DNA of 32,765 nucleotides from Bacteroidales bacterium (GTDB lineage: Bacteria; Bacteroidota; Bacteroidia; Bacteroidales; F082): the NCBI GenBank assembly GCA_017549605.1, contig JAFYUH010000058.1, positions 1 through 32,765 on the forward strand, read 5' to 3'. Under the pieces are notes generated by a model. It did no database searches and was not told where the DNA came from. It saw nothing but the letters and a program-made list of their open reading frames with translations. Position 1 is the first letter of the stretch; every line of letters starts with the position of its first letter. This document shows, one piece after another, positions 184-32,645 of this stretch. Both the position numbers and the translations under genes were made by a program.

Positions 184-1062
184 TTAATTTTTCAAAGCGT
201 TTGCTCCGCTGATGATCTCAACGAGTTCGTTGGTGATAGCAGACTGACGTGCTTTGTTATATGATATATTAAGCTCTTTCAAGAGTTCTGTCGCGTTATC
301 TGTAGCCTGCGTCATTGAAATCATACGAGCGCCTTGTTCTGATGCAAAGCTATCCAACAAGATCTTATAAACCTGAAGCTTCAACGACTTAGGAATCATA
401 ACACTCAGAAGCTCTTCCTTATTAGGCTGATAAATATAATCAACTTCAGACTCTGTCTGTTGTCCGTTGTCTGTTGTCTGTTGACTTACGAAAGGTAAAA
501 ACTGTTCTGTCACCAGCACCTGTGTCGCGGCGTTTTTAAACTGGTTATAGACAAAAACAATCTTATCGTATTTCTTGTCATCGAAGTCTTTCATCAGTCG
601 CTCAGCAAAAGCAGCAGCGTTCTCGTATGTCAAGTCATCCAACAAGACATTCTCATTGCCGATGACAGGATATTTCTTAAACTTAAGAGCTTCCTCGACT
701 TTAGAACCGACACATAAAATGTCAACGCCATTATTATCCAATAATGTCTGATATTCGTTTTTGATAAGATTTATCGTCTCACGGATGACGTTAGCGTTGA
801 ACACACCACAAAGACCTTTATTAGAAGAAAGAGGTATGATGAGAACTCTGCTGGTCGTTGACTGTTGACTGTTGTCTGTTGTCTGTTGACCATTTATCCT
901 CTCAAGAATCTCGCTGAACTTCTCGGCATAAGGACGTAATGCCATGATGGCATTCTGCGACTTACGCAGTTTAGAAGCTGCCACCATCTTCATGGCGCTC
1001 GTAATCTGCTTCGTCGAGTTGACAGATTCTATTCTCGTCCTGACTTCTTTTAAGTTTGCCAT
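184..1062 (-). CDS. atpG: F-type ATP synthase gamma subunit
   Basis: Central rotor stalk of F1; couples c-ring rotation to catalysis in the alpha3-beta3 head at the inner membrane. The 292-residue product starts with the conserved N-terminal helix (LKEVRTRIESVNSTKQITSA, residues 4-23) and contains the Rossmann-like core signature SSNKGLCGVFNANV (79-92) and a C-terminal helix. It is the last gene of the atp operon, 5 bp after atpA. Oddities: two low-complexity inserts, residues about 59-70 and 194-206, are encoded by TGTTGWC-type heptamer arrays (857-890 and 454-485). Both lie in loops that vary between species, so function is probably preserved. The reading frame is intact through both. Identity is certain; that the inserts are recent acquisitions is inference. 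Confidence 0.97.
   Translation of the reverse strand: MANLKEVRTRIESVNSTKQITSAMKMVAASKLRKSQNAIMALRPYAEKFSEILERINGQQTTDNSQQSTTSRVLIIPLSSNKGLCGVFNANVIRETINLIKNEYQTLLDNNGVDILCVGSKVEEALKFKKYPVIGNENVLLDDLTYENAAAFAERLMKDFDDKKYDKIVFVYNQFKNAATQVLVTEQFLPFVSQQTTDNGQQTESEVDYIYQPNKEELLSVMIPKSLKLQVYKILLDSFASEQGARMISMTQATDNATELLKELNISYNKARQSAITNELVEIISGANALKN
454..485 (-). repeat. Intragenic heptamer array B in atpG
   Basis: About 4.5 seven-nt units, on the coding strand GTCAACAGACAACAGACAAC followed by GGACAACAGACA. It encodes SQQTTDNGQQTES at residues 194-206, in frame. Its first 22 nt on the coding strand match the array in the TatD-type gene (8151-8180). Confidence 0.85.
857..890 (-). repeat. Intragenic heptamer array A in atpG
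   Basis: Five seven-nt units on the plus strand: (C)GTTGAC, TGTTGAC, TGTTGTC, TGTTGTC, TGTTGAC. Read on the coding strand it encodes QQTTDNSQQSTT (residues 59-70), in frame, between the N-terminal helix and the Rossmann-like core of the gamma subunit. Confidence 0.85.
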
Positions 1063-1067
1063 AACTC

Positions 1068-2654
1068 TTAATTCTTCATTATGCTATCACATACTCCAGC
1101 AGCCACATCCTTCAAGACAGCAACTATCTCATCATCGAGCTGACCTTGTCTTATCTTGTTCATGACATCAGCATAGCTGCTGTTGAGCATTGAGATATAA
1201 CTCTTTTCAAACTCAGCTATCTTATCCAAAGGCAGGCTTCTCATGAGGTTGTTGACGCCGCAGAATATCATCGCTACCTCTTCTTCCACCTTCATCGGTG
1301 ATGACTGAGGCTGGATGAGCATCTGTACGTTACGGCGGCCTTTATCCAATATTGCTTGTGTAGCAGCGTCGAGGTCAGAACCGAATTTCGAGAACGCCTC
1401 GAGTTCTCGGAACTGAGCCTGGTCAATCTTGAGAGTACCTGACACCTTCTTCATTGACTTGATCTGAGCCTTGCCGCCGACACGTGACACAGAGATACCC
1501 ACGTTGATAGCAGGGCGTATACCTGCGTTGAAGAGGTTGGTCTCAAGGAATATCTGACCGTCGGTGATGGAGATCACGTTGGTTGGGATATATGCCGAGA
1601 CGTCGCCAGCCTGTGTCTCGATGATTGGGAGGGCAGTGAGAGATCCGCCGCCTTTCACCTTGTCCTTAAGACATTCTGGGAGGTCGTTCATATTCTTAGC
1701 GATGTCGTCGTTAGCGACTATCTTAGCAGCACGTTCAAGCAATCTTGAGTGGAGATAGAACACGTCGCCAGGATAAGCCTCGCGTCCAGGTGGACGACGG
1801 AGAAGCAATGACACCTCGCGATAAGCGACAGCCTGTTTAGAGAGGTCATCGTAAACGACCAAAGCAGGACGGCCGGTGTCGCGGAAGTATTCGCCTATGG
1901 CAGCTCCAGCGAAAGGAGCGTAATACTGCATAGCGGCAGTGTCGGATGCTGTAGCGGCTACTACGACGGTATAAGGCAGCGCGCCCTTATCTTCCAAGGT
2001 CTGCACTATGTTAGCGATGGTAGAGCCTTTCTGTCCTACAGCGACATATATACAATAGACAGGTTCTCCCCTGTCGTAGAATTCTTTCTGATTTAAGATA
2101 GCATCGATGGCGATGGCGGTCTTACCTGTCTGACGGTCGCCGATGATAAGCTCACGCTGGCCACGTCCGATAGGTATCATGGCATCGACAGCTTTGATAC
2201 CTGTCTGAAGCGGTTCGCTGACAGGCTGACGGAAGATGACACCAGGAGCCTTACGTTCCAAAGGCATCTCCAAGGTCTCGCCTTTGATGGCGCCCTTGCC
2301 GTCGATAGGATGACCGAGGGTGTTGACGACACGGCCTAACATACCTTCACCGACTTGTATGGAAGCGATACGATGAGTACATTTCACCACATCACCTTCT
2401 TTTATATCTGAAGCGTCATTCAGAAGAACGACACCGACATTATCCTGCTCAAGGTTCAAGACAATGCCCATGGCACCTGTCTTCTCGAACTCAACCAGCT
2501 CGCCAGCCTCGGCATCTTTCATGCCATAAACACGAGCAACACCGTCACCGATCTGAAGGACAGAACCCTTGGTATCAAGCTCGCCCTTGGTGTCGAAGCC
2601 AGTTAATTCCTGAAGCAAAATCGCTGATATCTCAGCAGGTTTTATATTTTCCAT
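1068..2654 (-). CDS. atpA: F-type ATP synthase alpha subunit
   Basis: Non-catalytic nucleotide-binding subunit of the F1 head. The 528 residues show the N-terminal beta-barrel, the P-loop GDRQTGKT at 172-179, the visible motif [20 protein letters not shown] and the arginine-finger segment [11 protein letters not shown]. Length is slightly above the usual 500-515. It lies 23 bp after atpH and 5 bp before atpG, consistent with translational coupling in one transcript. A short imperfect duplication, [10 protein letters not shown] (residues 21-30), sits near the N-terminus in a variable region. No frameshift or missing key residue. Confidence 0.98.
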
Positions 2655-2677
2655 CGTATGTAATTTTATTTCTTTTC

Positions 2678-3241
2678 TTAATATCCTTTAACAAACAAAT
2701 TCTCTTCAAAGACAGAATGCAGACGTTTCAAAGTACTTACCACACTAGCATCATATTCATAATCCATATAATTGACTTTAAAACCTCCAATGATATTCTT
2801 GTCTATGACCTTCCTGACTTGAACAGTATCCTTATCGACAATCTTATGTCTCATAATATTGACGATTCTGTCGGTTGTATTCTCATCAAGATCAATGGCA
2901 GAAGTAACAGTCACTACAGCGATCTTCTTATATTCAAGATACAACTCGTAATATTCATCATAGATATCATCGATGATCTCTTCACGATTTTTTTCTATAA
3001 GAAGATTAACGAGATTCAATGTTATGACATCGACTCTGTCTTTAAAGATCTTAGTTATGATATTCGTCTTATGAAGCTTTGAGACAAAAGGCTGATGCAC
3101 CAACAGATCCAGTTCCTTATTCTCTTTGAAGGTTGTCTTCACGAGAAGAAGGTCGCCGAGAACCTTGTCGACAACACCATTCTGTATTGCCAAGTCAAGG
3201 AAAGCCTTTGCATATCTATTTACTAAGATGTTCGGTTTCAT
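2678..3241 (-). CDS. atpH: F-type ATP synthase delta subunit (OSCP)
   Basis: Peripheral stalk subunit linking the b dimer to the top of F1. The 187-residue product has the family's start ([15 protein letters not shown], residues 8-22) and a C-terminal signature region ([21 protein letters not shown]) like the 'GG..v.....d.S.' motif of OSCP proteins. The sequence is otherwise weakly conserved, as usual for delta. It starts 6 bp after atpF and ends 23 bp before atpA, and the gene order confirms the assignment. Confidence 0.95.
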
Positions 3242-3247
3242 GGTTTA

Positions 3248-3751
3248 TCATTTTTGAGTTCTCTCTTCTATTTCCTGAAGCAGACGGTTGATATAATCCA
3301 TCTGTTCCTTGTCTGATTCCAGAGTCTTGCCGATTATCTTCTCTGCCACTTTTATAGAGATGTCTGCTATCTGGTTCTTGATTTCCGTCGCAGCAGCCAT
3401 CTTCTCATTTTCTATTGTCTCTTTAGCGTTTTCTATGATACGGTCCTTCTCTTCGTTGGCCTTAACCTTAGCCTCTTCGATGAACCTATCGGAGATCAGC
3501 TTAGCTTCATTGAGTATCTTATCACGTTCTTCGCGAGCCTGATGAAGGAGCGCCTCGTTGTCAACTTGAAGCTGTTCCATTTCCTTATGAGTACGCTCTG
3601 CCAGTTCAAGGGCATTGGTGATCTCCTCCTCGCGTTTCTTCAACATTCCGTTTATGACAGGCAATGCGAACTTCGCCAAGATAAAAAACACTATTCCGAA
3701 TGCCAATGTCATCCAGAACAACAGACCAAAATCAGGAGTAATTAATTCCAT
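3248..3751 (-). CDS. atpF: F-type ATP synthase b subunit
   Basis: Membrane-anchored peripheral stalk. From the ATG at 3751 the protein is 167 residues: MELITPDFGLLFWMTLAFGI begins a single N-terminal membrane helix, followed by a long charged coiled coil (KKREEEITNALELAERTHKE and onward), standard for subunit b. An upstream in-frame GTG at 3808 would add 19 residues, but those are only the translation of a heptamer array and hairpin, so the ATG is preferred. No Shine-Dalgarno is visible; the bases just before the start are the array at 3753-3787. Follows atpE after 82 bp. Confidence 0.95.
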   Translation of the reverse strand: MELITPDFGLLFWMTLAFGIVFFILAKFALPVINGMLKKREEEITNALELAERTHKEMEQLQVDNEALLHQAREERDKILNEAKLISDRFIEEAKVKANEEKDRIIENAKETIENEKMAAATEIKNQIADISIKVAEKIIGKTLESDKEQMDYINRLLQEIEERTQK

Positions 3752-3752
3752 A

Positions 3753-3787
3753 ATTGAAAGTTGAAAGTTGAAAATTGAAAATTGTTT
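3753..3787 (-). repeat. Heptamer array abutting the atpF start
   Basis: Four RTTGAAA units (ATTGAAA, GTTGAAA, GTTGAAA, ATTGAAA) and a degenerate fifth on the plus strand. On the transcribed minus strand this gives TTTCAAY repeats ending one base before the atpF ATG, so the array occupies the ribosome-binding region of atpF. Confidence 0.8.
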
Positions 3788-3817
3788 AGAGTGTAGAGTG
3801 ATATCCACACTCTAAAC
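3784..3817 (-). promoter_or_regulatory. Perfect 11-bp hairpin between atpE and atpF
   Basis: GTTTAGAGTGT (3784-3794) and ACACTCTAAAC (3807-3817) are exact reverse complements around a 12-nt loop. In the minus-strand mRNA the hairpin begins 17 nt after the atpE stop and is followed by a pyrimidine-rich stretch but no true U-run. A role as attenuator or as 3'-end stabiliser that keeps atpE mRNA in excess (the c subunit is needed in many copies per complex) is inference. Confidence 0.6.
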
Positions 3818-3833
3818 TTTCCACTATAAACTC

Positions 3834-4100
3834 TTAAAGAGCTATAAGCAAGCAGACAACCAATGCGAAGAATGAAACACCTTCAACCAAAGCTGCAGAG
3901 ATGATCATGCTTGTCTGTGCGTTACCTGCTATCTCAGGCTGACGAGCTGTGGCTTCCAAAGCTGAGCTGCCGATTCTGCTGATACCCAAGGCTGCACCGA
4001 TTGTAACGATACTTGCTGCTAAAGCTGCACCTAACTGTGCCAATGGAGCCAAGTCAACAACTGCCTGAACTACTTCTTGTAATAAAACTAATAATGTCAT
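3834..4100 (-). CDS. atpE: F-type ATP synthase c subunit (proteolipid)
   Basis: Forms the rotating c-ring in the membrane. The 88 residues form a hairpin of two membrane helices joined by the polar loop RQPE (53-56). The ion-carrying glutamate is E73 (LVEGVSFF). The residues typical of sodium-binding rings are not present: the position equivalent to the helix-1 glutamine is Ile, and a Gly rather than a Ser follows the Glu. A proton-coupled ring is therefore likely. It is flanked by different heptamer arrays on both sides and by a strong downstream hairpin. Confidence 0.97.
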   Translation of the reverse strand: MTLLVLLQEVVQAVVDLAPLAQLGAALAASIVTIGAALGISRIGSSALEATARQPEIAGNAQTSMIISAALVEGVSFFALVVCLLIAL

Positions 4101-4122
4101 AACTTATAATTTTTATAAAGTT
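4101..4122 (-). promoter_or_regulatory. AT-rich inverted repeat upstream of atpE start
   Basis: AACTTATAAT and TTTATAAAGTT form an imperfect inverted repeat directly preceding the atpE ATG. It could fold in the mRNA leader, but it is all A-T except the ends, so stability is low. Reported as a weak candidate only. Confidence 0.25.
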
Positions 4123-4152
4123 TATATTTCTTTTTATTTTTATGTCAACAGA

Positions 4153-4187
4153 CCTAATTCTTCATTCCTAACTCCTAATTCCTAACT
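4153..4187 (-). repeat. Heptamer array containing the atpB stop codon
   Basis: Five 7-nt units in register on the plus strand: CCTAATT, CTTCATT, CCTAACT, CCTAATT, CCTAACT. On the minus strand (TTAGGAR units) the atpB TAG stop at 4188-4186 overlaps the first unit. The array fills part of the 85-bp atpB-atpE gap. Confidence 0.8.
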
Positions 4188-5301
4188 AACTATGTTTCGC
4201 TGCCATTCCAAAATATATTGACGACAGCAAGGTAAACACGTATGCCTGTATGAACGCCACCAGCACCTCAAGACAGTCGGCGAAGACTGCGAGCAATACT
4301 GACAGCACAGACATTCCAGCACCTGCCATAGCGCTCATCTCTCCCAAGATAAAGATCATACAGATGAAGCCAAGCACCACGATATGACCTGCGGTGATAT
4401 TAGCGAAAAGACGTACCGCCAAAACGAAAGGCTTGATGAAACAGCCTACTAGTTCAATGACCGGCATCAATGGCAATGGGAACTTCAACCACCAAGGCAC
4501 GCCAGGTGTGTTGAATATATCTTCATAATAATGTTTCGAACCCATGAAATTAGTGATGACGAAAGTAAACAAGGCAAGCACTGCTGTCACTGCTATGTTT
4601 CCTGTGATGTTAACGCCAAAAGGGAAAAACGGTATCAATCCTAAGAGATTGTTAAAGAATATAAAGAAAAACACCGTTAGCAGATAAGGGAAATAACGTT
4701 CATAATGTTCGCCGATATTAGGTTTGGCGATGTCATCACGCACATAGAGGATGATTGGTTCTACGAGAGCCTGTATTCCTTTGGGGGCCTTCTCGCCTCT
4801 CTCACGATAGCCTTTCGCGACAAGCAAAAACACTACGACCAAAAGAGTGCATGAGATAAACAATCCGCATACGGTCTTAGTTATAGAGATGTCTAACGGT
4901 CTTATCTGCGTTCCGTCTTCAAGGACTCTAACCACCTTGCCTTTATATTTTCCATCCTCAGCTATTTCAAAGACGACGGCATCGCCGTGCTTGTTCATGG
5001 CATGATACTGATGCTCATGGTGAAAATTCTTAGACGAAAAACAATAGAACTCGCCTTCGCTATAAACTATTATCGGAAGATACACACTGATGTGATTTCC
5101 TTTCCAAGTACATATATGCCAATCGTATGAATCTAAAATATGGTCGAAGATAAGTTCTCCAGCGTCAAATTTCTCTTCTGTTTCATGTCCATTATCGTTT
5201 GCAAAAACCTTGACAGGAGTCAAGATTGTAAAACTTATTACAAACAAACAAGTTATAAGATTTAATATATATTTTCTAACAAACGATATGCTGTTTCTCA
5301 T
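4186..5301 (-). CDS. atpB: F-type ATP synthase a subunit
   Basis: Stator channel subunit that passes protons to the c-ring. The 371 residues are longer than the roughly 270 of E. coli. Residues 1-34 look like a signal peptide, and 35-140 form a hydrophilic, probably periplasmic domain rich in His and acidic residues. The membrane core follows, with the essential arginine R297 in PFVLAVRLFANITAGH and a conserved C-terminal region (FIQAYVFTLLSSIYFGMA). Such N-terminal extensions are common in Bacteroidetes AtpB. It is the first gene of this operon; no atpI, atpD or atpC lies upstream, where the divergent RNase H gene starts. Confidence 0.96.
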   Translation of the reverse strand: MRNSISFVRKYILNLITCLFVISFTILTPVKVFANDNGHETEEKFDAGELIFDHILDSYDWHICTWKGNHISVYLPIIVYSEGEFYCFSSKNFHHEHQYHAMNKHGDAVVFEIAEDGKYKGKVVRVLEDGTQIRPLDISITKTVCGLFISCTLLVVVFLLVAKGYRERGEKAPKGIQALVEPIILYVRDDIAKPNIGEHYERYFPYLLTVFFFIFFNNLLGLIPFFPFGVNITGNIAVTAVLALFTFVITNFMGSKHYYEDIFNTPGVPWWLKFPLPLMPVIELVGCFIKPFVLAVRLFANITAGHIVVLGFICMIFILGEMSAMAGAGMSVLSVLLAVFADCLEVLVAFIQAYVFTLLSSIYFGMAAKHS

Positions 5302-5402
5302 TATATCTTTACCAATTTTATTAAATGCAATTCTACAAAAAAAAACGATATCATTTGAGGTTTTTTATTTCATTTTTCAAAAAAAGATATGCTTTTCTTT
5401 GT

Positions 5403-5410
5403 TACTTTTG
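5403..5410 (+). promoter_or_regulatory. -7 box TACTTTTG of the RNase H gene
   Basis: Matches the Bacteroidetes -7 consensus TAnnTTTG. It ends only 4 nt before the ATG at 5415, so transcription probably begins at or next to the start codon (leaderless or nearly so). No good -33 TTTG is seen at the expected distance. Confidence 0.6.
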
Positions 5411-5414
5411 CATT

Positions 5415-6047
5415 ATGGCAAAGAACAAATATTACGTGGTCTGGAACGGCAGACAGATAGGTATTTACAGCAACTGGGACTCTTGCAAATTGCAGATTGA
5501 AGGGTTCAAAGGTGCGCAATATAAATCATTTCCCGACAGGGCAAGCGCAGAGGAAGCCTTCAAAGCAGGATATCAGAAGTCAACGGACAACAGTCAACAG
5601 ACAACGGTTAAATCTTACGAAAATTTGCCAGAGAACCAGAGACCTATTGGTCAGAGCATCGCCGTCGACGCAGCTTGTTCCGGCAATCCTGGCAAGATGG
5701 AGTTTCAAGGTGTTTTTGTAGAGACAAACACACATCTCTTCAAGAGTCCGGTCTACGAACAAGGCACCAACAATATCGGAGAGTTCCTCGCCATAGTCTA
5801 TTGCCTGGCATGGCAAAAGAAAAACAAGCTCAGCTACCCTATCTATTCCGACTCTGTAAATGCGCAGAAATGGGTAAGAGAAGGCGCCTGCAAGACTAAG
5901 ATTGCTGAAAACGAAAACAACAGACCACTCTTTGACGTTATACGATGGGCTGAGAGATGGCTTAAGGAAAATACTTTCAGAGTCCCTATCTATAAATGGA
6001 GGACTGAGATCTGGGGAGAAATACCAGCCGACTTCGGAAGAAAATAA
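5415..6047 (+). CDS. rnhA: Ribonuclease H with N-terminal viroplasmin domain
   Basis: Cleaves the RNA strand of RNA-DNA hybrids. From ATG 5415 (210 residues), residues 3-52 are a viroplasmin/RHBD hybrid-binding domain (KYYVVWNGRQIGIYSNWDSC, then FKGAQYKSF), joined by a linker to the RNase H domain. The catalytic acidic set is visible: D85 (AVDAACSGNPG), E123 (NNIGEFLA), D146 (IYSDSVNA) and D206 (GEIPADFG). Linker residues 56-64 (STDNSQQTT) are encoded by a heptamer array (5579-5607). The -7 box ends 4 nt before the start; upstream in-frame codons would lie in the promoter. Divergent from the atp operon. Confidence 0.93.
   Translation: MAKNKYYVVWNGRQIGIYSNWDSCKLQIEGFKGAQYKSFPDRASAEEAFKAGYQKSTDNSQQTTVKSYENLPENQRPIGQSIAVDAACSGNPGKMEFQGVFVETNTHLFKSPVYEQGTNNIGEFLAIVYCLAWQKKNKLSYPIYSDSVNAQKWVREGACKTKIAENENNRPLFDVIRWAERWLKENTFRVPIYKWRTEIWGEIPADFGRK
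5579..5607 (+). repeat. Intragenic heptamer array C in the RNase H linker
   Basis: Four 7-nt units, GTCAACG, GACAACA, GTCAACA, GACAACG, on the coding strand. They encode STDNSQQTT in frame, exactly in the linker between the viroplasmin and RNase H domains. Orientation relative to the gene is the same as in atpG and the TatD-type gene. Confidence 0.85.
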
Positions 6048-6055
6048 TATATTTG
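6048..6055 (+). promoter_or_regulatory. -7 box TATATTTG of the CxxC protein gene
   Basis: Matches TAnnTTTG and ends 15 nt before the ATG at 6071. It overlaps the stop codon region of the RNase H gene, so this gene may have its own promoter besides read-through. Confidence 0.5.
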
Positions 6056-6070
6056 CAAAAAATAACACCC

Positions 6071-6829
6071 ATGATAAAATTCGATACTTTTTATATACAA
6101 TGTCCTAGATGCAAAAGCTGGATGGAAGGTCATCGTCTTATCTCATCGATGGTCAATCAGGCGATCTTATATTCTGACGGAAAGATCCTGAACGACGGAT
6201 ATATGACTGAGAACCAGAAAATGATAGTATGCCCAGCTTGCAGCCACTGGTCATGGGTGGAGAAATACGAAGAACCATATATCATCAAGAAAAAACCTAA
6301 AGACACCTTTTACACATGGAACAGCTGGCGTTTCTACGGCGCACATTTCATGAGCAACAAAGGCAAGATGGCTCTGGTAAACCATTACAGAAACTTCCTG
6401 AACAACGGCAATTACAATATCGACCAAGAGATTTATTTCCGTCGTCTTATGTGGTGGGCCTTCAATGATTTCGTAAGAAACAGACATCAAATCAACATTG
6501 AGACATACACATCTAAAGAGATGAGTTTCAAGGTATGGTACAGAAACAGAAAGAAAATTCTGGAAGGCATAAAGTTATTCCAAAAATGCCGCGAACATTT
6601 CAACGAAAACCTTAGAGCTTTAATAGACTTATACAAGTTACGATACACTCCAGACGATGAGGAATATGAATCAGTGAATCTTGAGATTATCGAGATATAC
6701 CGTCAACTTGGAGATTTCGAAAACGCCCAGCTGCTGCTCGACCAAAACACACGTCGCACACACTTCATCTCCACCATCGAGAAGAAAGTAGAAGAAAGAG
6801 ACGACTTGGTATTTCTGGTTTCAGGATGA
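6071..6829 (+). CDS. Unknown protein with two CxxC pairs
   Basis: I do not recognise this 252-residue family. Two CxxC pairs, C11/C14 (QCPRCKSW) and C54/C57 (VCPACSHW), each followed by an aromatic, suggest one zinc-binding module at the N-terminus. The rest is charged, tryptophan- and tyrosine-rich and predicted mostly helical, with a possible TPR-like pair near the C-terminus (EIIEIYRQLGDFENAQLLLDQ; only this much is suggestive). No signal peptide or membrane helix, so cytoplasmic. It starts 23 bp after the RNase H gene. Start chosen at 6071 because an upstream TTG lies inside the -7 box. An octamer array begins 3 bp after its stop. Confidence 0.8.
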   Translation: MIKFDTFYIQCPRCKSWMEGHRLISSMVNQAILYSDGKILNDGYMTENQKMIVCPACSHWSWVEKYEEPYIIKKKPKDTFYTWNSWRFYGAHFMSNKGKMALVNHYRNFLNNGNYNIDQEIYFRRLMWWAFNDFVRNRHQINIETYTSKEMSFKVWYRNRKKILEGIKLFQKCREHFNENLRALIDLYKLRYTPDDEEYESVNLEIIEIYRQLGDFENAQLLLDQNTRRTHFISTIEKKVEERDDLVFLVSG

Positions 6830-6832
6830 TTT

Positions 6833-6872
6833 AAGTCTATAAGTCTATGTGTCAATAAGTCTATGAGATTTT
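6833..6872. repeat. Octamer array AAGTCTAT between convergent genes
   Basis: Five 8-nt units in register: AAGTCTAT, AAGTCTAT, GTGTCAAT, AAGTCTAT, GAGATTTT. It occupies most of the 60-bp gap between the convergent CxxC protein gene and tcdA. No conventional terminator hairpin is visible in this gap. Confidence 0.75.
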
Positions 6873-6889
6873 AGTAGGAGCAACCTAAC

Positions 6890-7603
6890 TTATTGACTCA
6901 AAATACTTCTTATAACATGTGAAGCGCAGAAGCAGCCGAATATTGCTGGCATATAAGATATGGTTCCGACTGTTGCGATCTTGTTTTCTGTAGCTTCTTC
7001 TATCGAGACTGCACTTTCCGCGACTTTCTCAGGCGAGAACACCACGGTGATGCCTTCGCGTATTCCAAGTCGGTGGAGTCGTTTTCTTATGTAAAAAGCC
7101 AGACGACAGTTATGTGATTTCGAGATGTCGTCAATCTCAATCTTAGTTGGATCAAACTTACCGCCTGCGCCCATGCAGCTGACGATGTTCTGTTTGTTTT
7201 GAACTGCATAATATAAAAGGAATACCTTAGGAGCCAGTGTGTCAATAGCATCGACGACGAAGTCGAAATGCTGCTCCATCAAGTCGATGATAGGCTGGTC
7301 TTTAAGATATTGGTTTATGGCAACTACTTCAACATCAGGGTTGATGTCGCGGATACGTTCTGCCATCACCTCTACCTTTGGACGTCCGAGGGTGCTGTCA
7401 AGAGCCAGGAGCTGTCTGTTTTTATTAGTCACATTGACGATGTCGCAGTCGACGATAGTGAGTTTTCCTATTCCGGCACGCGCTAACTGTTCAGCAGCGT
7501 ATGCGCCAACACCGCCAAGCCCCACGACGAGGACATGACTGTTCGCTAATTTCTTAACGCCTTCTTCTCCGACTAACAACTGTGTTCTTGAGTTCCAATT
7601 CAT
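6890..7603 (-). CDS. tcdA: tRNA threonylcarbamoyladenosine dehydratase (ThiF/E1-like)
   Basis: ATP-dependent cyclisation of t6A37 to ct6A in ANN-decoding tRNAs. The 237 residues start NWNSRTQLLVGEEGVKKL and carry the E1-like nucleotide-binding motif VLVVGLGGVGAYAAEQLARAG (split: VLVVGLGGVG 24-33) and NVTNKNRQ, the usual R-Q context of ThiF-type ATP binding. The segments DAIDTLAPK and GAGGKFDPT match the TcdA subgroup rather than MoeB or ThiF, and no CxxC zinc cluster typical of MoeB is present. It overlaps the TatD-type gene by 4 bp (ATGA), so the two are translationally coupled; last gene of the gpmA operon. Confidence 0.9.
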   Translation of the reverse strand: MNWNSRTQLLVGEEGVKKLANSHVLVVGLGGVGAYAAEQLARAGIGKLTIVDCDIVNVTNKNRQLLALDSTLGRPKVEVMAERIRDINPDVEVVAINQYLKDQPIIDLMEQHFDFVVDAIDTLAPKVFLLYYAVQNKQNIVSCMGAGGKFDPTKIEIDDISKSHNCRLAFYIRKRLHRLGIREGITVVFSPEKVAESAVSIEEATENKIATVGTISYMPAIFGCFCASHVIRSILSQ

Positions 7604-8325
7604 ATCTGTCCAAAAATTTTTACAAAGTTATTAAAAATATCGTTGCGCAGCTTATCCATTTCGAGACCCGACAAAAGCGCCGCTTTCTCATAGACATCGC
7701 TTATCTTTCTCTCCGCGACGTCGGTCTCAAAGAACAATCTATCCGTCGGGATGATTCGCAAAAGCTGCTTCGCACGAGCTTCGTTCTTAAACAAGACATC
7801 GCCTAAAGAGAGATAGATATCGGCATGTTTCAAAAGCTGCTCAGCCGACTGCTCATTACCTTGGAAACCGTGTATTATCCAGAATTGTTTCGCCTTGGTT
7901 TCTTTCCTTATTGAGATAATATCTGGATATGATCTTACCGCATGAATTATCAAAGGTTTCGCAATTCTCTCTGACAACTCAATCTGTTTTATAAATACTT
8001 CTTTCTGGATTTCAAAATCCACTCCACAAGCCCTGTCAAGTCCGCATTCACCTATTGCGAGAAAATTCAAGTCACCGAGACACCCAGACTCCAAGTCACC
8101 AAGTTTTTGAATTCCTGAGTTTTTGAATTTCTGAGTTTGTTGATAAAAGATCTGTTGACCGTTGTCTGTTGTCTGTTGACTTTTCCACGGATGTATTCCA
8201 ATGCTATAAAAATGAGAAACATCGACATTGACTATATTGTCAACATCGATGTTTTGTATCTCAACAAACTCATTATTATCGATATGATTATTATAATGAG
8301 TATGAATATTTACGAAAGGACTCAT
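7600..8325 (-). CDS. TatD-family metal-dependent hydrolase with repeat insertion
   Basis: Probable TatD-type deoxyribonuclease/hydrolase with a TIM-barrel fold. Metal-ligand motifs are present: HTH (H8, H10), GECGLD (E93 region), IIHAVRS, WIIHGFQG and ETD (FFETDVAE). Length is 241 residues, near the family norm, but residues 49-87 between GIHPW and FLAIGECGLD are low-complexity (SQQTTDNGQQ, then KFKNSGIQKLGDLESG) and are encoded by a heptamer array (8151-8180) plus nine octamers (8068-8139). Homologues usually carry a variable helix here. The catalytic motifs are intact and the frame is open, so the gene is probably functional. It lies 11 bp after the phosphoesterase gene and overlaps tcdA by 4 bp. 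Confidence 0.88.
   Translation of the reverse strand: MSPFVNIHTHYNNHIDNNEFVEIQNIDVDNIVNVDVSHFYSIGIHPWKSQQTTDNGQQIFYQQTQKFKNSGIQKLGDLESGCLGDLNFLAIGECGLDRACGVDFEIQKEVFIKQIELSERIAKPLIIHAVRSYPDIISIRKETKAKQFWIIHGFQGNEQSAEQLLKHADIYLSLGDVLFKNEARAKQLLRIIPTDRLFFETDVAERKISDVYEKAALLSGLEMDKLRNDIFNNFVKIFGQI
8068..8139 (-). repeat. Intragenic array of nine octamers in the TatD-type gene
   Basis: Nine 8-nt units in register on the plus strand: CAAGTCAC, CGAGACAC, CCAGACTC, CAAGTCAC, CAAGTTTT, TGAATTCC, TGAGTTTT, TGAATTTC, TGAGTTTG. Nine octamers equal 72 nt, a multiple of three. The 20 bp at 8115-8134 recur exactly, inverted, at 13819-13838 in the gap after recO. Confidence 0.85.
8151..8180 (-). repeat. 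Intragenic heptamer array D in the TatD-type gene
   Basis: Just over four 7-nt units; coding strand begins GTCAACAGACAACAGACAAC, identical over 20 nt to both atpG arrays and over 22 nt to array B. It encodes SQQTTDNGQQI, directly after the GIHPWK motif, and is separated by 11 bp from the octamer block. Confidence 0.85.
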
Positions 8326-13068: not shown

Positions 13069-13802
13069 TGGCGAAGACGACAAGCAAGACAAGAGCCATT
13101 GTGCTTCAATCCATTAAATATGGAGATAGCAGCCTCGTTGTCAAGATGCTGACAGAAGAGCTAGGCATTCAGTCTTATATGGTAAAAGGCGTCTTTGGCA
13201 AGAAGTCGAAGATGAAAGCTGCTCTTTTTCAGAATATGACATTACTTGAGATTGTTGCAGACACTAGCAGCAACAGCCTCGGTTTCATCAGAGAAATATC
13301 ACTATCACACTACTACCAAAGTATCGCTACCGATATAAAGAAATCTACTATCATAATATTCGTCAGCGAGTTGTTATCAAAAGCCATCAGCGAAAGCGAG
13401 AGTGACCCTGAACTCTTCAATTTCATTTACGACTCTATGTTATGGCTCGATGAAGCCACATCAGATTATGCGAACTTCCCTATAGTATTCGCATTGAAGT
13501 TGAGCCGATATCTGGGATTCTTCCCTAACATCGATACATACTCAGAAAAATCATGCTTTGACTTGTTAGACGGAAACTTCAAGATGACTCAGAACGACAT
13601 ACATCAGATCGATGAAGAACTAAGCAGATATTTCTACGACATCTGCAAGGCGTCAATGAGAGGCGATCAACAGAATTTAACAATAAGCAACAGCATCAGA
13701 CGCAAGCTATTGGAATCTATAGTAATGTATTACAAACTACATGCTGACGAGGTAAGAGACATCAAGTCGTATGAGATTTTAAGGACGCTGCTTGATGCAT
13801 AG
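13068..13802 (+). CDS. recO: DNA repair protein RecO
   Basis: Loads RecA at gaps with RecF and RecR, displacing SSB. The 244 residues start with the OB fold typical of RecO (TKTRAIVLQSIKYGDSSLVV is near the start, residues 5-24, with a small offset) and MVKGVFGKKSKMKAALFQNM, followed by a helical C-terminal domain. A zinc cluster is not evident, as in many Bacteroidetes RecO. The ATG overlaps the porZ stop (TAATG), so expression is tied to porZ. An octamer array starts directly after its TAG stop. Confidence 0.92.
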   Translation: MAKTTSKTRAIVLQSIKYGDSSLVVKMLTEELGIQSYMVKGVFGKKSKMKAALFQNMTLLEIVADTSSNSLGFIREISLSHYYQSIATDIKKSTIIIFVSELLSKAISESESDPELFNFIYDSMLWLDEATSDYANFPIVFALKLSRYLGFFPNIDTYSEKSCFDLLDGNFKMTQNDIHQIDEELSRYFYDICKASMRGDQQNLTISNSIRRKLLESIVMYYKLHADEVRDIKSYEILRTLLDA

Positions 13803-13882
13803 TTAGAAGATTAGAAATTCAGAAATTCAAAAACTCAGAATCTCAGAATCTCAGAATCTCAGAAATTTAGAAGTTTAGAAGT
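13803..13882. repeat. Array of ten octamers immediately after recO
   Basis: Ten 8-nt units in perfect register, of the form TYAGAANN with one exception: TTAGAAGA, TTAGAAAT, TCAGAAAT, TCAAAAAC, three TCAGAATC, TCAGAAAT, two TTAGAAGT. The first unit begins at the base after the recO stop codon. The 20 bp at 13819-13838 are the exact reverse complement of 8115-8134 inside the TatD-type gene. Confidence 0.85.
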
Positions 13883-13892
13883 TTATATAAAC

Positions 13893-29507: not shown

Positions 29508-31661
29508 ATGAATACAAAAGCTAAATTCATCGTCATGGGAAGCATGATTACATTATTCGGTTGCAGCCAGCCTGCTAAATATTCTGTAAAAGAATATCCT
29601 GAAACAAGAAAAGACCTCACCGTCGTTGACGAATATTTTGGAACAAAAGTCGCCGACCCTTATCGTTGGCTTGAAAACGACACCACAGCAGAGACAGCAC
29701 AATGGATTGACGCTCAACGTGCAGTGACAGAAGATTATCTCTCACACATTCCTTTCCGCGAAAACATAAAACAACGTCTCACCGACTTGGTCAACTACGA
29801 GCGTTACAGCATCCCTTCAAAACGCTTCGGCCATTACATCTTCTCAAAGAATGACGGCTTGCAAAACCAAAACGTGATTTACATCCAAAACTCTTTAGAT
29901 GAAGAGCCTTCAGTTCTCCTCGACCCTAACACCTTGTCAGACGACGGAACTGTCGCTTTGAACGGAACATTCCAGTCAAACGACGGCAAGTACCTCGCCT
30001 ACAGCATCCAACGCAGCGGATCCGACTGGGTAGAGATTTATGTCATGGACATCGCGACTCGCGAACTCCTCACCGACCACATCCAATGGGCTAAGTTCAC
30101 CGGCGCTTCTTGGTATAAAGACGGCTTCTTCTATGGAGCATACGACCGTCCTGAAGAAGGCAAGGAATTCAGCAACGTAAACGAAAACCATAAGATTTAC
30201 TATCATAAACTCGGCACACCGCAAGAAGAAGATGTCTTGTTCTACGAAAACCCAGAACAGCCACGCTACTTCCACACAGTGTCACTCACCGATGATGAGA
30301 AATATATGTTTATGTTCGAAAGCGGTCAAGGCGTAGGTCACACCTTATGGATCAGAGACATGGAAAATCCTAAGGGCAAATTCGAACAGATCGGTTTCGA
30401 CATGAACAGCCAATACAGTCCTATCGACGTTATCGACGGCACCTTATATATATTAACAACCAACGAAGCTCCTAAGGGCAAGATCTGCAAAGTCGATGTC
30501 AAGAACCCTCAGTTAAGCAACTGGGTAGATGTCATCCCTGAAAGCAAAAACGTTATCTCCGGCATCAACCTCGCTGACGGCAAGATGATAGTCACTTACG
30601 ACCAAGACGCTTCACATCACGCTTACGTCTACACTATGGACGGCAAGATGTTACACGAAATCGCGTTGCCAACATACGGCGCTATCGGCATCAGCAGCGA
30701 CTATAAAGAAAAAGAAATATTCTACGCATTCACATCTTTCGCATTCCCAACAACGATCTACAGATACAACATCGACGACAACACTTCGGAAGTCTTCCGC
30801 GCTCCTGCCATCGATTTCAAGTCTGAAGATTACGTCACAGAACAAGTCTTCGTCACTTCAAAAGACGGCACTAAAGTACCGATGTTCTTGACATATAAAA
30901 AAGATATGAAGAAAGACGGCAACAACCCAGCATTGCTCTATGGTTACGGCGGTTTCAACATCACCTTAAACCCAAGCTTCTCAACATCACGACTTCCATT
31001 CATTGAAAACGGCGGCATCTACGCACAGATGAACCTCCGCGGCGGCAAGGAATACGGAGAAGAATGGCATCTCGCTGGAACTAAGTTACAGAAACAAAAT
31101 GTCTTCGACGACTGCATCTCATGTGCAGAATATCTCATCGACAATGGCTACAGCTCACCTAAATATCTAGCCGTCAACGGCGGTTCTAACGGCGGTTTGT
31201 TAGTAGGAGCTGTCGTGAACCAACGTCCTGACTTATTCGCAGCGGCAGTGCCACAAGTCGGCGTGATGGATATGTTACGTTATCATTTATTCACAATCGG
31301 CTGGAACTGGGCCAGCGACTACGGCACCAGCGACGAAAGCAAGGAGATGTTTGAAGCGCTTTATGCATATTCGCCATTACATACAATACAAAACGGCGAG
31401 GATGTCAACTACCCTGCTATCATGGTGACAACAGCCGACCACGACGACCGCGTAGTGCCAGCACACTCATTCAAATATGCAGCAGCATTGCAAGACGCAC
31501 AGACTGGCGACAACGTCAAGATCATCAGAATCGACAGCAAAGCAGGTCACGGCGCTGGCAAACCAATATCAAAGGTCATTGAAGAACAAGCCGATATCTA
31601 CTCATTTATCTTATATAACATGGGGTTGGGATATAATGTACAATGTACAATGAACAATTGA
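29508..31661 (+). CDS. Prolyl oligopeptidase family lipoprotein
   Basis: Serine peptidase S9A that cuts short proline-containing peptides. From ATG 29508 it is 717 residues: lipobox LFGC (about residue 19), the N-terminal helix and seven-bladed propeller (DPYRWLENDTT, then blades such as DGKYLAYSIQRSGSDW), and the alpha/beta hydrolase domain with S560 (NGGSNGGLLVG), the Asp pair D646-D647 (ADHDDRVVP) and H681 (KAGHGAGKP). Periplasmic or surface membrane-anchored; a role in peptide nutrition is likely in this phylum. The last nine residues (YNVQCTMNN) and the TGA stop are encoded by the heptamer array that follows, so the original C-terminus probably ended near GLG. Confidence 0.93.
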   Translation: MNTKAKFIVMGSMITLFGCSQPAKYSVKEYPETRKDLTVVDEYFGTKVADPYRWLENDTTAETAQWIDAQRAVTEDYLSHIPFRENIKQRLTDLVNYERYSIPSKRFGHYIFSKNDGLQNQNVIYIQNSLDEEPSVLLDPNTLSDDGTVALNGTFQSNDGKYLAYSIQRSGSDWVEIYVMDIATRELLTDHIQWAKFTGASWYKDGFFYGAYDRPEEGKEFSNVNENHKIYYHKLGTPQEEDVLFYENPEQPRYFHTVSLTDDEKYMFMFESGQGVGHTLWIRDMENPKGKFEQIGFDMNSQYSPIDVIDGTLYILTTNEAPKGKICKVDVKNPQLSNWVDVIPESKNVISGINLADGKMIVTYDQDASHHAYVYTMDGKMLHEIALPTYGAIGISSDYKEKEIFYAFTSFAFPTTIYRYNIDDNTSEVFRAPAIDFKSEDYVTEQVFVTSKDGTKVPMFLTYKKDMKKDGNNPALLYGYGGFNITLNPSFSTSRLPFIENGGIYAQMNLRGGKEYGEEWHLAGTKLQKQNVFDDCISCAEYLIDNGYSSPKYLAVNGGSNGGLLVGAVVNQRPDLFAAAVPQVGVMDMLRYHLFTIGWNWASDYGTSDESKEMFEALYAYSPLHTIQNGEDVNYPAIMVTTADHDDRVVPAHSFKYAAALQDAQTGDNVKIIRIDSKAGHGAGKPISKVIEEQADIYSFILYNMGLGYNVQCTMNN

Positions 31662-31716
31662 CAATTGATAATTGATAATTGATAATTGATAATTGATAAT
31701 TGATAATTGATAATTT
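31632..31716 (+). repeat. Heptamer array TAYAATG / AYAATTG between oligopeptidase and patatin genes
   Basis: Three TAYAATG units (31632-31652), one extra A, then eight AYAATTG units (31654-31709), the last six identical, and a degenerate ATAATTT. The array starts inside the last codons of the oligopeptidase gene, supplies its TGA stop (31659-31661), and ends 4 nt before the patatin ATG. Confidence 0.9.
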
Positions 31717-31720
31717 GCAA

Positions 31721-32560
31721 ATGATAAAGATAACAGATAAATCCGGATTGATACTCGAAGGTGGAGGCATGAGAGGTGTCTTCACCTCCGGTGTTCTGGA
31801 CTGCTTCATGGACAATGGCATACGTTTTCCTTACGCCATAGGCGTCAGCGCCGGCGCATGTAACGGCCTTTCCTACATCTCAAACCAAAGAGGCAGAGCC
31901 AAGTTCAGCAACATCGACTTGCTGGAAAAATATGATTACATCGGCATAAAACATCTCTTGAAGAAAGGCAACATCATGGATTTCGATTTGCTGTTCCACA
32001 CCTTCCCTAACGAAATCATTCCATACGATTACGAGAGATTGGCAAACTACGAAGGTCATTATGAGATGGTGACAACGAGCTGCAAGACCGGCAAGGCCTG
32101 TTATTTCGAAGAAAAGAAAAATCCAGAGAGAGTCATTGACATAGTGAAGGCATCCAGCAGCCTTCCTTTCGTATGTCCTATAGCATACGTCGACGGCGAA
32201 CCTATGGTCGATGGCGGCATAGCCAGCTCCATCCCGCTCATGAGAGCCAGAGAGTTGGGCTACGACAATAACGTAGTGGTCCTCACACGTAACAGAGGAT
32301 ACCGTAAGAAAGAAAAAGATATGAAGTTTGTTTCTTTATTTTACAGGAAATATCCAGCATTGCAAGAAGCCATCAGAAATCGTAACAGAATCTACAACGA
32401 ACAAGTCAGCATGATCGAGAAGCTGGAAGACGCTGGAGAAATCATCGTCATCCGCCCTCAAAAACCAATGGAAGTCGACAGAATGGAACGCGACAGCAAA
32501 AAACTGATCGCCTTATACGAAGAAGGATATGAATTAGGACTTAAGGGATTAAGGAATTAA
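31721..32560 (+). CDS. Patatin-like phospholipase
   Basis: Lipid acyl hydrolase with a Ser-Asp dyad. From ATG 31721, 279 residues: oxyanion loop EGGGMRGVFTSGV near residue 13, nucleophile serine in IGVSAGACNG (GxSxG) and catalytic aspartate in VDGGIASSIP (DGG). No signal peptide, so cytoplasmic or membrane-associated, like the E. coli YjjU group. An in-frame ATG at 31700 lies inside the heptamer array and is unlikely. The final residues (KGLRN) and the stop fall in an octamer array. The expression signal must lie in or before the heptamer array that separates it from the oligopeptidase gene. Confidence 0.9.
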   Translation: MIKITDKSGLILEGGGMRGVFTSGVLDCFMDNGIRFPYAIGVSAGACNGLSYISNQRGRAKFSNIDLLEKYDYIGIKHLLKKGNIMDFDLLFHTFPNEIIPYDYERLANYEGHYEMVTTSCKTGKACYFEEKKNPERVIDIVKASSSLPFVCPIAYVDGEPMVDGGIASSIPLMRARELGYDNNVVVLTRNRGYRKKEKDMKFVSLFYRKYPALQEAIRNRNRIYNEQVSMIEKLEDAGEIIVIRPQKPMEVDRMERDSKKLIALYEEGYELGLKGLRN

Positions 32561-32637
32561 GGATTTGAGGAACTAAGGAACTAAGAACTAAGGAACTGAA
32601 GAAATCCTCATACCCTCAAATCCTCATACCCTCATAC
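32543..32637. repeat. Octamer array containing the patatin gene stop
   Basis: Units in register from 32543: AAGGGATT, AAGGAATT, AAGGATTT, GAGGAACT, AAGGAACT, a 7-nt AAGAACT, AAGGAACT, GAAGAAAT, then CCTCATAC, CCTCAAAT, CCTCATAC, CCTCATAC. The second block is roughly the reverse complement of AGG-rich units of the first (purine block, then pyrimidine block), so the transcript could fold on itself between the convergent patatin and glutathione peroxidase genes. Confidence 0.8.
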
Positions 32638-32645
32638 CCAAAAAA

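What the first reader, a model, noticed from the sequence alone, without database searches (positions are those of the whole stretch)
454..8180. One heptamer repeat is inserted in frame in three conserved genes
Four arrays of TGTTGWC-type heptamers lie inside coding regions: twice in atpG (454-485, 857-890), once in rnhA (5579-5607) and once in a tatD-type gene (8151-8180). All have the same orientation relative to the gene and begin GTCAAC on the coding strand; three share a 20-mer exactly. Each encodes a Q/T/D/N/S linker (for example QQTTDNGQQ) in a loop or inter-domain position while all active-site motifs stay intact. The four sites are in unrelated protein families, so the shared element is the DNA. 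I know of no named element of this kind; similar QTTDN strings do occur in annotated Bacteroidetes proteins from general familiarity.
Basis: partly seen in the sequence, partly recalled or inferred. Interest (0 to 1): 0.85.

Follow-up and report, generated by a model that had tools for sequence, protein, structure and literature searches.

The report
Seven/eight-base repeat blocks inside genes
This uncultured gut bacterium's genome is sprinkled with short blocks of a repeated seven- or eight-base word, and blocks whose word contains no stop codon can sit in flexible loops of essential proteins, where sister species often carry different blocks.

Summary
In detail: all four arrays are at the stated places, in frame and in the same sense, and three share an exact 20-mer. 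"One repeat inserted in three genes" is too narrow. The window lies in a Bacteroidales MAG whose nearest named relatives come from herbivore guts. In a 745,786-bp sample, 269 of 283 tandem arrays have period 7 or 8; Markov shuffles of 399,257 bp gave none. Of 116 arrays of the window's family, 95 have exactly four units. Some 20 recurrent unit families occur per genome. Arrays touch stop codons more often than random placement predicts, and some form inverted hairpin pairs.

Within genes, tested without requiring an open frame, arrays of units with stops both ways are rare (5 of 193) compared with stop-free ones (56 of 326); all 31 one-way-open ones lie in the open orientation. At matching sites a sister species often has another length or unit family.

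So these are DNA-level repeats tolerated in protein loops, related to heptanucleotide (STRR/LSSR) repeats. The ~4.5-unit block and family swapping at fixed sites are unexplained.

The parts
454..485 (-). heptamer array, 4 units, in atpG (codons 193-203, SQQTTDNGQQT)
   Evidence: relatives have a loop of about the same size
857..890 (-). heptamer array, about 5 units, in atpG (codons 58-70, GQQTTDNSQQSTT)
   Evidence: G077 has a different heptamer mosaic there
184..1062 (-). atpG, ATP synthase gamma subunit, open through both arrays
5579..5607 (+). heptamer array, 4 units, in the linker between hybrid-binding domain and RNase H domain (codons 55-65, KSTDNSQQTTV)
   Evidence: PDB best stretches cover residues 4-45 and 77-210, so the array is in the linker
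5415..6047 (+). ribonuclease H with N-terminal hybrid-binding (viroplasmin-like) domain
8151..8180 (-). heptamer array, 4 units, in the tatD-type gene (codons 49-59, SQQTTDNGQQI); absent from sister G077, a related array in G071
8102..8143 (-). second array in the same tatD loop, period 8/16 (AATTCAAAAACTCAGG)
   Evidence: a related octamer array is at the same place in G077
8068..8104 (-). third array in the same tatD loop, period 8 (GTGACTTG / GTCTCGGT)
7600..8325 (-). TatD-family hydrolase carrying three arrays in frame
31635..31727 (.). AATTGAT/AATGTAC heptamer array running over the stop codon of the gene ending at 31661
13805..13885 (.). AGAAACTC octamer array directly after the gene ending at 13802
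32531..32639 (.). two adjacent octamer arrays (GAATTAAG, AAATCCTCATACCCTC)
6832..6865 (.). TAAGTCTA octamer array 2 nt after the ORF ending at 6829
3752..3784 (.). AATTGAA heptamer array just upstream of the likely atpF start

Best explanation
The arrays are members of a lineage-specific, genome-wide crop of very short tandem DNA repeats with a unit of 7 or 8 bases. In the best-behaved families they come as stereotyped blocks of about 4.5 units, i.e. five short cores with four spacers: 31-33 bp for period 7 and 35-36 bp for period 8. The block is a DNA-level element that spreads to, and turns over at, many places. Most survive between genes, often at a stop codon and in part as inverted pairs that fold into hairpins, which may act as transcript 3' ends.

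Inside genes they survive in loops and linkers, and almost only if the unit has no stop codon on the sense strand. Because 7 and 8 are coprime to 3, a stop-free unit is stop-free in all three frames and encodes the same 7- or 8-residue cycle (here Q-Q-T-T-D-N-R/S), so any entry frame works if the net length change is a multiple of 3.

Shown: period restriction, block length in several families, stop filter, orientation, frame keeping, site reuse, family swap. Inferred: spread and replacement by slippage plus template switching between like arrays; terminator-like use of the hairpins; passive tolerance as the only role inside proteins.
For: Period: G000 sample 745,786 bp: 191 arrays of period 7, 78 of period 8, 14 of all other periods 4-13; Markov shuffles of 399,257 bp, 0. 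G077 677,735 bp: 157, 93 and 29. In 20 G077 stretches not chosen for family 1 (316,771 bp): 64, 34 and 19.
Block length: 95 of 116 family-1 arrays have exactly 4 units; 40 of 48 deep intragenic, 34 of 46 intergenic. The commonest half-unit class is 4.5 in 11 of 14 family-by-genome sets, sharply so in AAGTCACC (22 of 31), AAGACTAC (29 of 39) and AATTATG of G077 (33 of 77).
Stop filter without requiring an open frame: arrays lying between two parts of one homologous gene are 5 of 193 for units with stops both ways, 31 of 209 for units open one way (31 of 31 in the open orientation), 25 of 117 for units open both ways; closed against open p = 8e-8. 58 of these 61 leave the frame intact; the other 3 lie in one gene (L135:5615-5869).
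Orientation of CAACAG arrays, whose two strands are both stop-free: 36 sense to 1 antisense (30:1 at a stricter match).
Site reuse: of 117 conserved intergenic regions 23 have arrays in both species, 11 and 14 in one, 69 in none; odds ratio 10.3, p = 3e-7 (5.8, p = 5e-4 for regions of 40 bp or more). 9 of the 23 share no unit family.
Gene ends: arrays wholly between genes lie within 10 nt of a stop codon at 29 of 115 (G000) and 26 of 129 (G077) flanks, 25% and 20%, against 8-9% by random placement; no excess at starts.
Hairpins: 31 inverted pairs by a loose rule; the 12 folded give -17 to -52 kcal/mol, no shuffle control.
Against: Plain slippage should give a falling length distribution, so the 4.5-unit peak leaves the spreading mechanism unexplained; and the peak is not general: GAATTCCT 0 of 12, AATCTCAG 3 of 23, AACTAAG 3 of 26, GTTCAAA 9 of 50. 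No enzyme was found among the three families searched. The family-1 finder lets W and R vary freely and allows only one other mismatch per unit, so the finding that variation is concentrated there (other core positions 94-100% fixed) is partly built in. My first stop-filter test (4 of 193, 33 of 209, 30 of 117) and the length test in frame (26 of 29 coding rows 0 or 3n against 21 of 56 noncoding; by distinct sites 22 of 24 against 14 of 42) used only frames open through the array and so partly assume the result; one search does not. True hairpin arms are only modestly more complementary (0.845, n=16) than shuffled same-family arms (0.789, n=74), so selection on the hairpin is weakly supported; four-base direct repeats around pairs exceed random intervals (21 of 31, mean 9.3), perhaps AT-rich flanks, perhaps insertion. 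The G000 stretches were chosen for family-1 arrays. Everything rests on MAGs.
Confidence: 0.72

Rival explanations
1. Ordinary heptanucleotide simple sequence repeats: independent slippage births at many places, with homoplasy of favoured words and no dispersal of a block. Loops and intergenic DNA merely tolerate them.
For: Heptanucleotide excess is known in bacteria (PMC4679880, passages); period 7 dominates; low-density arrays exist in other Bacteroidota: 31 in 1,308,084 bp, 0.24 per 10 kb; several families show no length peak.
Against: One unit family occurs in over 100 arrays in one genome (116 in the sample) while 33 of 35 other congeners have no exact match. Block length peaks at 4.5 units in 11 of 14 sets, with preferred start and end phases.
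Confidence: 0.35
2. A dedicated mobile element or writing system places 32- or 36-bp blocks (single arms or hairpins) and rewrites existing blocks with another unit family, like a very small MITE/REP.
For: Stereotyped block length in several families and both periods; inverted pairs with short loops; the same site holding hairpins of different families in sister species, e.g. L161:5689-5763 (AATTCAT, period 7) against G077 L197:2823-2894 (AAGTCAAT type, period 8).
Against: No candidate enzyme in the families searched: Y1_Tnp (RAYT) 0 matches in G000, G027 and G064; RVT_1 1 in G000, 0 in G077, G071 and G027. Target-site duplication unresolved.
Confidence: 0.2
3. The repeats are selected as protein segments (useful Q/T/N/D linkers) and the DNA repetition is secondary.
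For: Intragenic sense peptides here are hydrophilic; CAACAG sense to antisense 36:1 although the reverse strand is also stop-free.
Against: The same arrays are as common between genes and gather at stop codons, and different units encoding different peptides occupy the same loop in relatives. The sense bias is equally explained by rejection of the cysteine- and leucine-rich reverse reading.
Confidence: 0.07
4. Ancestral protein loops with repeat-like codons, not inserted DNA.
For: The atpG and rnhA variable regions exist in all five near relatives aligned.
Against: Residues and DNA differ between relatives; tatD gains residues; an identical 20-mer occurs in unrelated genes.
Confidence: 0.03

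Closest known systems
Cyanobacterial STRR / heptanucleotide long simple sequence repeats (LSSR)
   Same: Seven-base units, many copies, mostly intergenic, several families per genome, copies that form hairpins near gene ends (passages in PMC2670836; PMC4692102; PMC4679880). From memory only: one STRR unit of Calothrix is CAACAGT, nearly the unit here.
   Different: Period 8 is also abundant here; block length peaks near 4.5 units in many families; many copies are in frame in conserved genes; a sister species often carries another family at the same site.
[quoted passage not shown]
   Same: Heptamer arrays of mostly 2-6 copies, patchy between relatives, no spreading mechanism known (PMC4679880, abstract and passages).
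   Different: In the Beggiatoaceae one unit lies mostly just upstream of start codons; here many units, an excess at stop codons and none at starts.
GGGAATC / GGGGATT repeats of Xanthomonas and Nostoc
   Same: Heptamers, in Xanthomonas mostly between the same genes in two related species with extensive length and sequence variation (PMC4692102, passages).
   Different: G-quadruplex-forming words; in-frame use in conserved genes was not reported in the passages read.
Rickettsia palindromic elements (RPE)
   Same: A DNA repeat found in frame in unrelated genes (described in PMC10969869, passage).
   Different: RPEs are about 150 bp, palindromic, with a conserved peptide; these are 31-36 bp tandem blocks of many sequences.
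Tandem repeats in Borg ORFs
   Same: Tandem DNA repeats that add disordered peptide to proteins and evolve fast (PMC9879509, passages).
   Different: Borg repeats in ORFs have unit lengths divisible by three and are virtually all unique; here the units are 7 or 8 and dispersed.

Membership tests
STRR / heptanucleotide LSSR | tandem units of 7 bases, far above chance, dispersed | tested here: met
   but period 8 is also abundant
STRR / heptanucleotide LSSR | mainly intergenic, with hairpin-forming inverted copies | tested here: met
   61 of 519 arrays within a homologous gene
STRR / heptanucleotide LSSR | variable copy number as expected from slippage | tested here: not met
   95 of 116 family-1 arrays have exactly 4 units; mode 4.5 units in 11 of 14 family sets, but 3 sets have no such peak. 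Hence filed as a variant, not a plain member
Rickettsia palindromic element | in-frame presence in unrelated genes | tested here: met
   58 of the 61 arrays within a homologous gene, of 519 arrays in two genomes, leave the frame intact
Rickettsia palindromic element | about 150 bp element with internal palindrome | tested here: not met
   family-1 arrays, inside genes too, are mostly single 4-unit blocks of about 31 bp
REP/BIME with RAYT | RAYT (Y1_Tnp, PF01797) in the genome | tested here: not met
   0 in G000, the richest of the genomes counted, and 0 in G027 and G064; G000 is about 85% complete
MITE | target-site duplication | tested here: inconclusive
   k=4 21 of 31 against mean 9.3, k=5 4 against 3.2, k=6 4 against 0.9, k=7 1 against 0.4, k=8 1 against 0.2
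diversity-generating retroelement / RT-templated writing | reverse transcriptase in array-rich genomes | tested here: not met
   RVT_1 not found in G077, G071 and G027; one in G000; MAGs incomplete
phase-variable simple sequence repeat | length change that switches a gene on and off | not testable with these tools
   no strain or read data; 58 of 61 arrays within genes leave the frame intact, which argues against switching

The most novel reading that the evidence does not exclude
These bacteria possess an active, still unknown writing process that places blocks of about 4.5 units of a 7- or 8-base word (32 or 36 bp) at fixed sites, gene ends and permissive protein loops, and overwrites them with a different word over time, so that architecture is inherited while sequence is replaced.
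Probability: 0.2. Interest if true: 0.9.

Novelty: new variant of a known kind. Interest (0 to 1): 0.63.

Why it matters
Heptanucleotide repeats have long been known in bacteria without a settled explanation of why seven. Here is a lineage in which two periods (7 and 8) hold most arrays, block length is stereotyped in many families, dozens of unit words coexist, and related species can be compared site by site. It shows a general rule for how non-triplet repeats can live in genes: a unit coprime to three is either open in all frames or closed in all, so the stop-codon content of the unit decides whether it may stay in a protein. It also offers a natural test bed for how hairpins at gene ends can keep their shape while their sequence is swapped.

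Tried and rejected
RAYT/Y1_Tnp as mover: not found in G000, G027 and G064. Reverse transcriptase: not found in G077, G071 and G027. Loss of SbcD (hairpin nuclease) as permissive cause: above the cut-off in G000, G077, G071, G009 and G027, and in 13 of 17 array-poor middle-band genomes. Target-site duplication: inconclusive.

A widespread Bacteroidales element: in a sample of 393 genomes of the order, 14 (own included) have the 18-mer, none but the own with more than 14 matches; that sample holds only five genus members and no near relative. A genus-wide feature: p7+p8 density in loci around three genes is 1.50 per 10 kb in five near relatives (53,300 bp, 8 arrays; none in G009 and G027), 0.05 in 17 middle ones (182,941 bp, 1 array) and 1.52 in 20 far ones (78,868 bp, 12 arrays in 9 genomes, many beside atpG and so perhaps one old site). 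The bands are by AtpG identity; no tree was built. The backwards control is uninformative because the pattern reads the same backwards, and that overlaps the arrays themselves (57 matches in G000).

Rows dropped: arrays scoring under 14 are missed, among them the window arrays at 5579 and 8151, so counts are conservative and "none detected" is an overestimate. Of 269 G000 arrays, 91 had an orthologous site in the G077 sample (same family 30, different 26, none detected 35; same means up to 2 mismatches). In the length test 6 of these 91 rows (in a called gene but not validated) were set aside, and some rows share a G077 site, hence the recount by distinct sites. The output (73 pairs) was cut; I cite only rows that were shown. 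The gene caller is home-made. One search counts only frames open through the array; one search repeats the test without that condition. The 31 inverted pairs use a loose rule and include a few doubtful ones; the same call found 9 direct pairs and 69 neighbours of different families.

Literature: searches (CC-licensed PMC only; only the listed top rows were looked at) listed no paper on in-frame 7/8-base arrays in Bacteroidales. Papers were seen as passages only. Mazel 1990 and Vioque 1997 are recalled, not seen; Mrazek 2007 was seen only as cited in PMC4679880.

Full report
1. Check of the observation. Three share a 20-mer exactly. The pattern is far above chance (15 matches against a mean of 1.16 and a maximum of 4 in shuffles).

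2. Where the arrays sit in the proteins. In atpG both arrays fall where alignments to the two best solved gamma subunits show gaps. In the RNase H gene the array lies between the hybrid-binding domain (PDB stretches 4-45) and the catalytic domain (77-210). In the tatD-type gene it lies after the HPW motif and before the conserved A-[IL]-G-E segment; solved TatD chains match only from residue 76 or later, so no structure covers it. Alignments with five near relatives (AtpG identity G077 89%, G071 81, G064 79, G009 74, G027 72) show variable regions at these places.

3. Are they insertions? Only tatD is a clear net gain: 49 residues between anchors against 36, 26, 31, 28 and 32 in G077, G071, G064, G009 and G027. 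That loop holds three arrays in the window's genome; G077 has octamer-type arrays there, and G071 a heptamer array close to the window's own. In atpG and rnhA the length is within the range of relatives, and G077 carries a different heptamer mosaic at atpG site 1 and rnhA. So these sites are repeatedly filled with repeat DNA rather than hit once.

4. The genome. The window is contig C36 of a 2.53 Mb MAG, 84.75% complete. Equal contig lengths indicate that G077 is the MAG RGIG313 (dairy cattle colon), G071 RGIG7675 (water buffalo rectum) and G027 SIG105, labelled Lentimicrobiaceae. Further near records come from yak and horse.

5. Abundance. CAACRGWCAACRGWCAAC occurs 279 times in G000, 152 in G027, 121 in G071, 44 in G077, 31 in G009, 7 in G064 and 0 in four middle-band genomes. 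Of 35 other congeners, only G009 and G027 had the exact pattern used there. Of 393 genomes sampled across the order, 14 have it.

6. Not one family. In 745,786 bp of G000 a detector for periods 4 to 13 found 191 arrays of period 7, 78 of period 8 and 14 of all others; Markov shuffles of 399,257 bp gave none. G077 gave 157, 93 and 29 in 677,735 bp. The G000 stretches were picked because they held family-1 arrays. In 20 G077 stretches not picked for it (316,771 bp) the counts are 64, 34 and 19, so the period restriction holds there, less sharply. Consensus units cluster into 32 families in G000 and 31 in G077, ten singletons in each.

7. Stereotyped blocks. Of 116 family-1 arrays, 95 have exactly four units: GWC(AACRGWC)4. 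Variation is concentrated in two positions per unit; the other core positions are 94-100% fixed, but the finder allowed only one such mismatch per unit. In 11 of 14 family-by-genome sets the commonest length is 4.5 units, strongly in AAGTCACC (22 of 31), AAGACTAC (29 of 39) and AATTATG of G077 (33 of 77), weakly in others (GTTCAAA 9 of 50); GAATTCCT (0 of 12), AATCTCAG (3 of 23) and AACTAAG (3 of 26) have no such peak.

8. Hairpins and gene ends. Thirty-one inverted pairs were found by a loose rule, gaps 0-97 bp, against 9 direct pairs and 69 neighbours of different families. The first 12, folded as RNA without a shuffle control, give -17 to -52 kcal/mol. Arrays wholly between genes lie within 10 nt of a stop codon at 29 of 115 flanks in G000 and 26 of 129 in G077 (25% and 20%), against 8% and 9% for random placement in the same gaps; starts show 5 of 103 and 10 of 105, no excess. 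A second setting is beside CAAAGATAATAAAA, the reverse complement of the Bacteroidetes -7 promoter box (recalled), so those arrays lie just upstream of likely promoters.

9. The stop filter. The fair test asks only whether both flanks match consecutive parts of one homologous protein, whatever the frame. Units with stops both ways lie within a gene in 5 of 193, units open one way in 31 of 209, all 31 in the open orientation, and units open both ways in 25 of 117 (closed against open p = 8e-8). Of these 61 arrays 58 leave the frame intact; the 3 others lie together in one gene region, L135:5615-5869. An earlier test that admitted only open frames gave 4, 33 and 30. For the window's own family, open both ways, sense to antisense is 36:1 (30:1 with a stricter match); the exception, L144:14487, was placed between genes by the gene caller. 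Length differences to G077 are 0 or 3n at 22 of 24 distinct coding sites against 14 of 42 noncoding, though the coding set was chosen for open frames. This is what a DNA-level element under a translation filter predicts, and it explains why the rnhA array, in another codon phase, encodes the same kind of peptide.

10. Turnover. Of 269 G000 arrays, 91 have an orthologous site in the G077 sample: 30 hold the same family, 26 a different one and 35 no detected array. Over 117 intergenic regions with conserved neighbours, arrays co-occur (23 both, 11 and 14 one, 69 none; odds ratio 10.3), yet 9 of the 23 shared regions have no family in common; 14 share one, against 8.0 (SD 1.7, maximum 13 in 200 shuffles) by random pairing. 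So sites are inherited more strictly than words. Examples: L143:10607-10704 against G077 L191:14465-14534 (both inverted pairs, GTCAACA against AATTCAT), and L161:5689-5763 against L197:2823-2894 (period 7 against period 8).

11. Mechanism. Shown: period restriction, block length in many families, stop filter, orientation, frame keeping, site reuse, family swap. Inferred: slippage and template switching between like arrays spread and homogenise families. Not explained: why blocks stop at about 4.5 units, and how both arms of a hairpin change family together. Three candidate enzyme families were searched and do not track the arrays.

12. Comparison with the known. The nearest kind is the heptanucleotide repeats (STRR/LSSR) of cyanobacteria, Xanthomonas and Beggiatoaceae (passages in PMC2670836, PMC4692102 and PMC4679880). 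Rickettsia palindromic elements share the in-frame habit but not the structure (PMC10969869, passage). Borg tandem repeats in ORFs have unit lengths divisible by three, unlike these (PMC9879509, passages). The repeats of Bacillus with constant size and variable sequence (20-21 and 52 nt; PMC8161180, passages) share the idea of a fixed period with changing sequence. One expectation of plain slippage repeats, variable copy number, was tested and not met in most families, so this is filed as a new variant.

13. Limits. All data of this lineage are MAGs; no reads, strains or expression were available; the gene caller is simple; validations depend on a limited set of relatives; some rows share a site.

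Noticed in passing
L143:10607-10704 and G077 L191:14465-14534: Between the same genes, both species have an inverted pair of arrays of similar arm length, but one uses GTCAACA and the other AATTCAT: architecture kept, word swapped.
   Followed up: partly
L161:5689-5763 and G077 L197:2823-2894: The same convergent gene pair has a period-7 hairpin in one species and a period-8 hairpin in the other.
   Followed up: partly
L151:19064, L163:14041, L155:3485, L161:16453: Arrays lie between CAAAGATA(A)TAAAA-like sequence (reverse complement of the recalled Bacteroidetes -7 box) and a run of T, i.e. upstream of likely promoters; G077 has other units at the same spot.
   Followed up: no
window 31635-31727: A heptamer array runs across the stop codon of the gene ending at 31661, probably a prolyl oligopeptidase (name recalled, not searched); its C-terminal residues NVQCTMNN are array-encoded.
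   Followed up: no
window 3752-3784: A heptamer array ends just upstream of an in-frame ATG (MELITPDFG) in atpF; the listed ORF start at 3808 is probably too early.
   Followed up: no
L147:6789, L147:12861, L148:8253: Three large genes, probably paralogues, carry nearly the same 31-bp array about 200 nt before their stop codon; all map to one G077 place with non-repeat DNA of equal length.
   Followed up: partly
genus loci L031-L120: 17 middle-band genomes have almost no period-7/8 arrays (1 in 182,941 bp) while nearer and more distant ones have more, with other units in the distant ones; a lost gene might explain it.
   Followed up: partly
L135:5615-5869: Three arrays of three unit words, two of them with stop codons, lie close together in one gene region whose match to a homologue is interrupted.
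   Followed up: no
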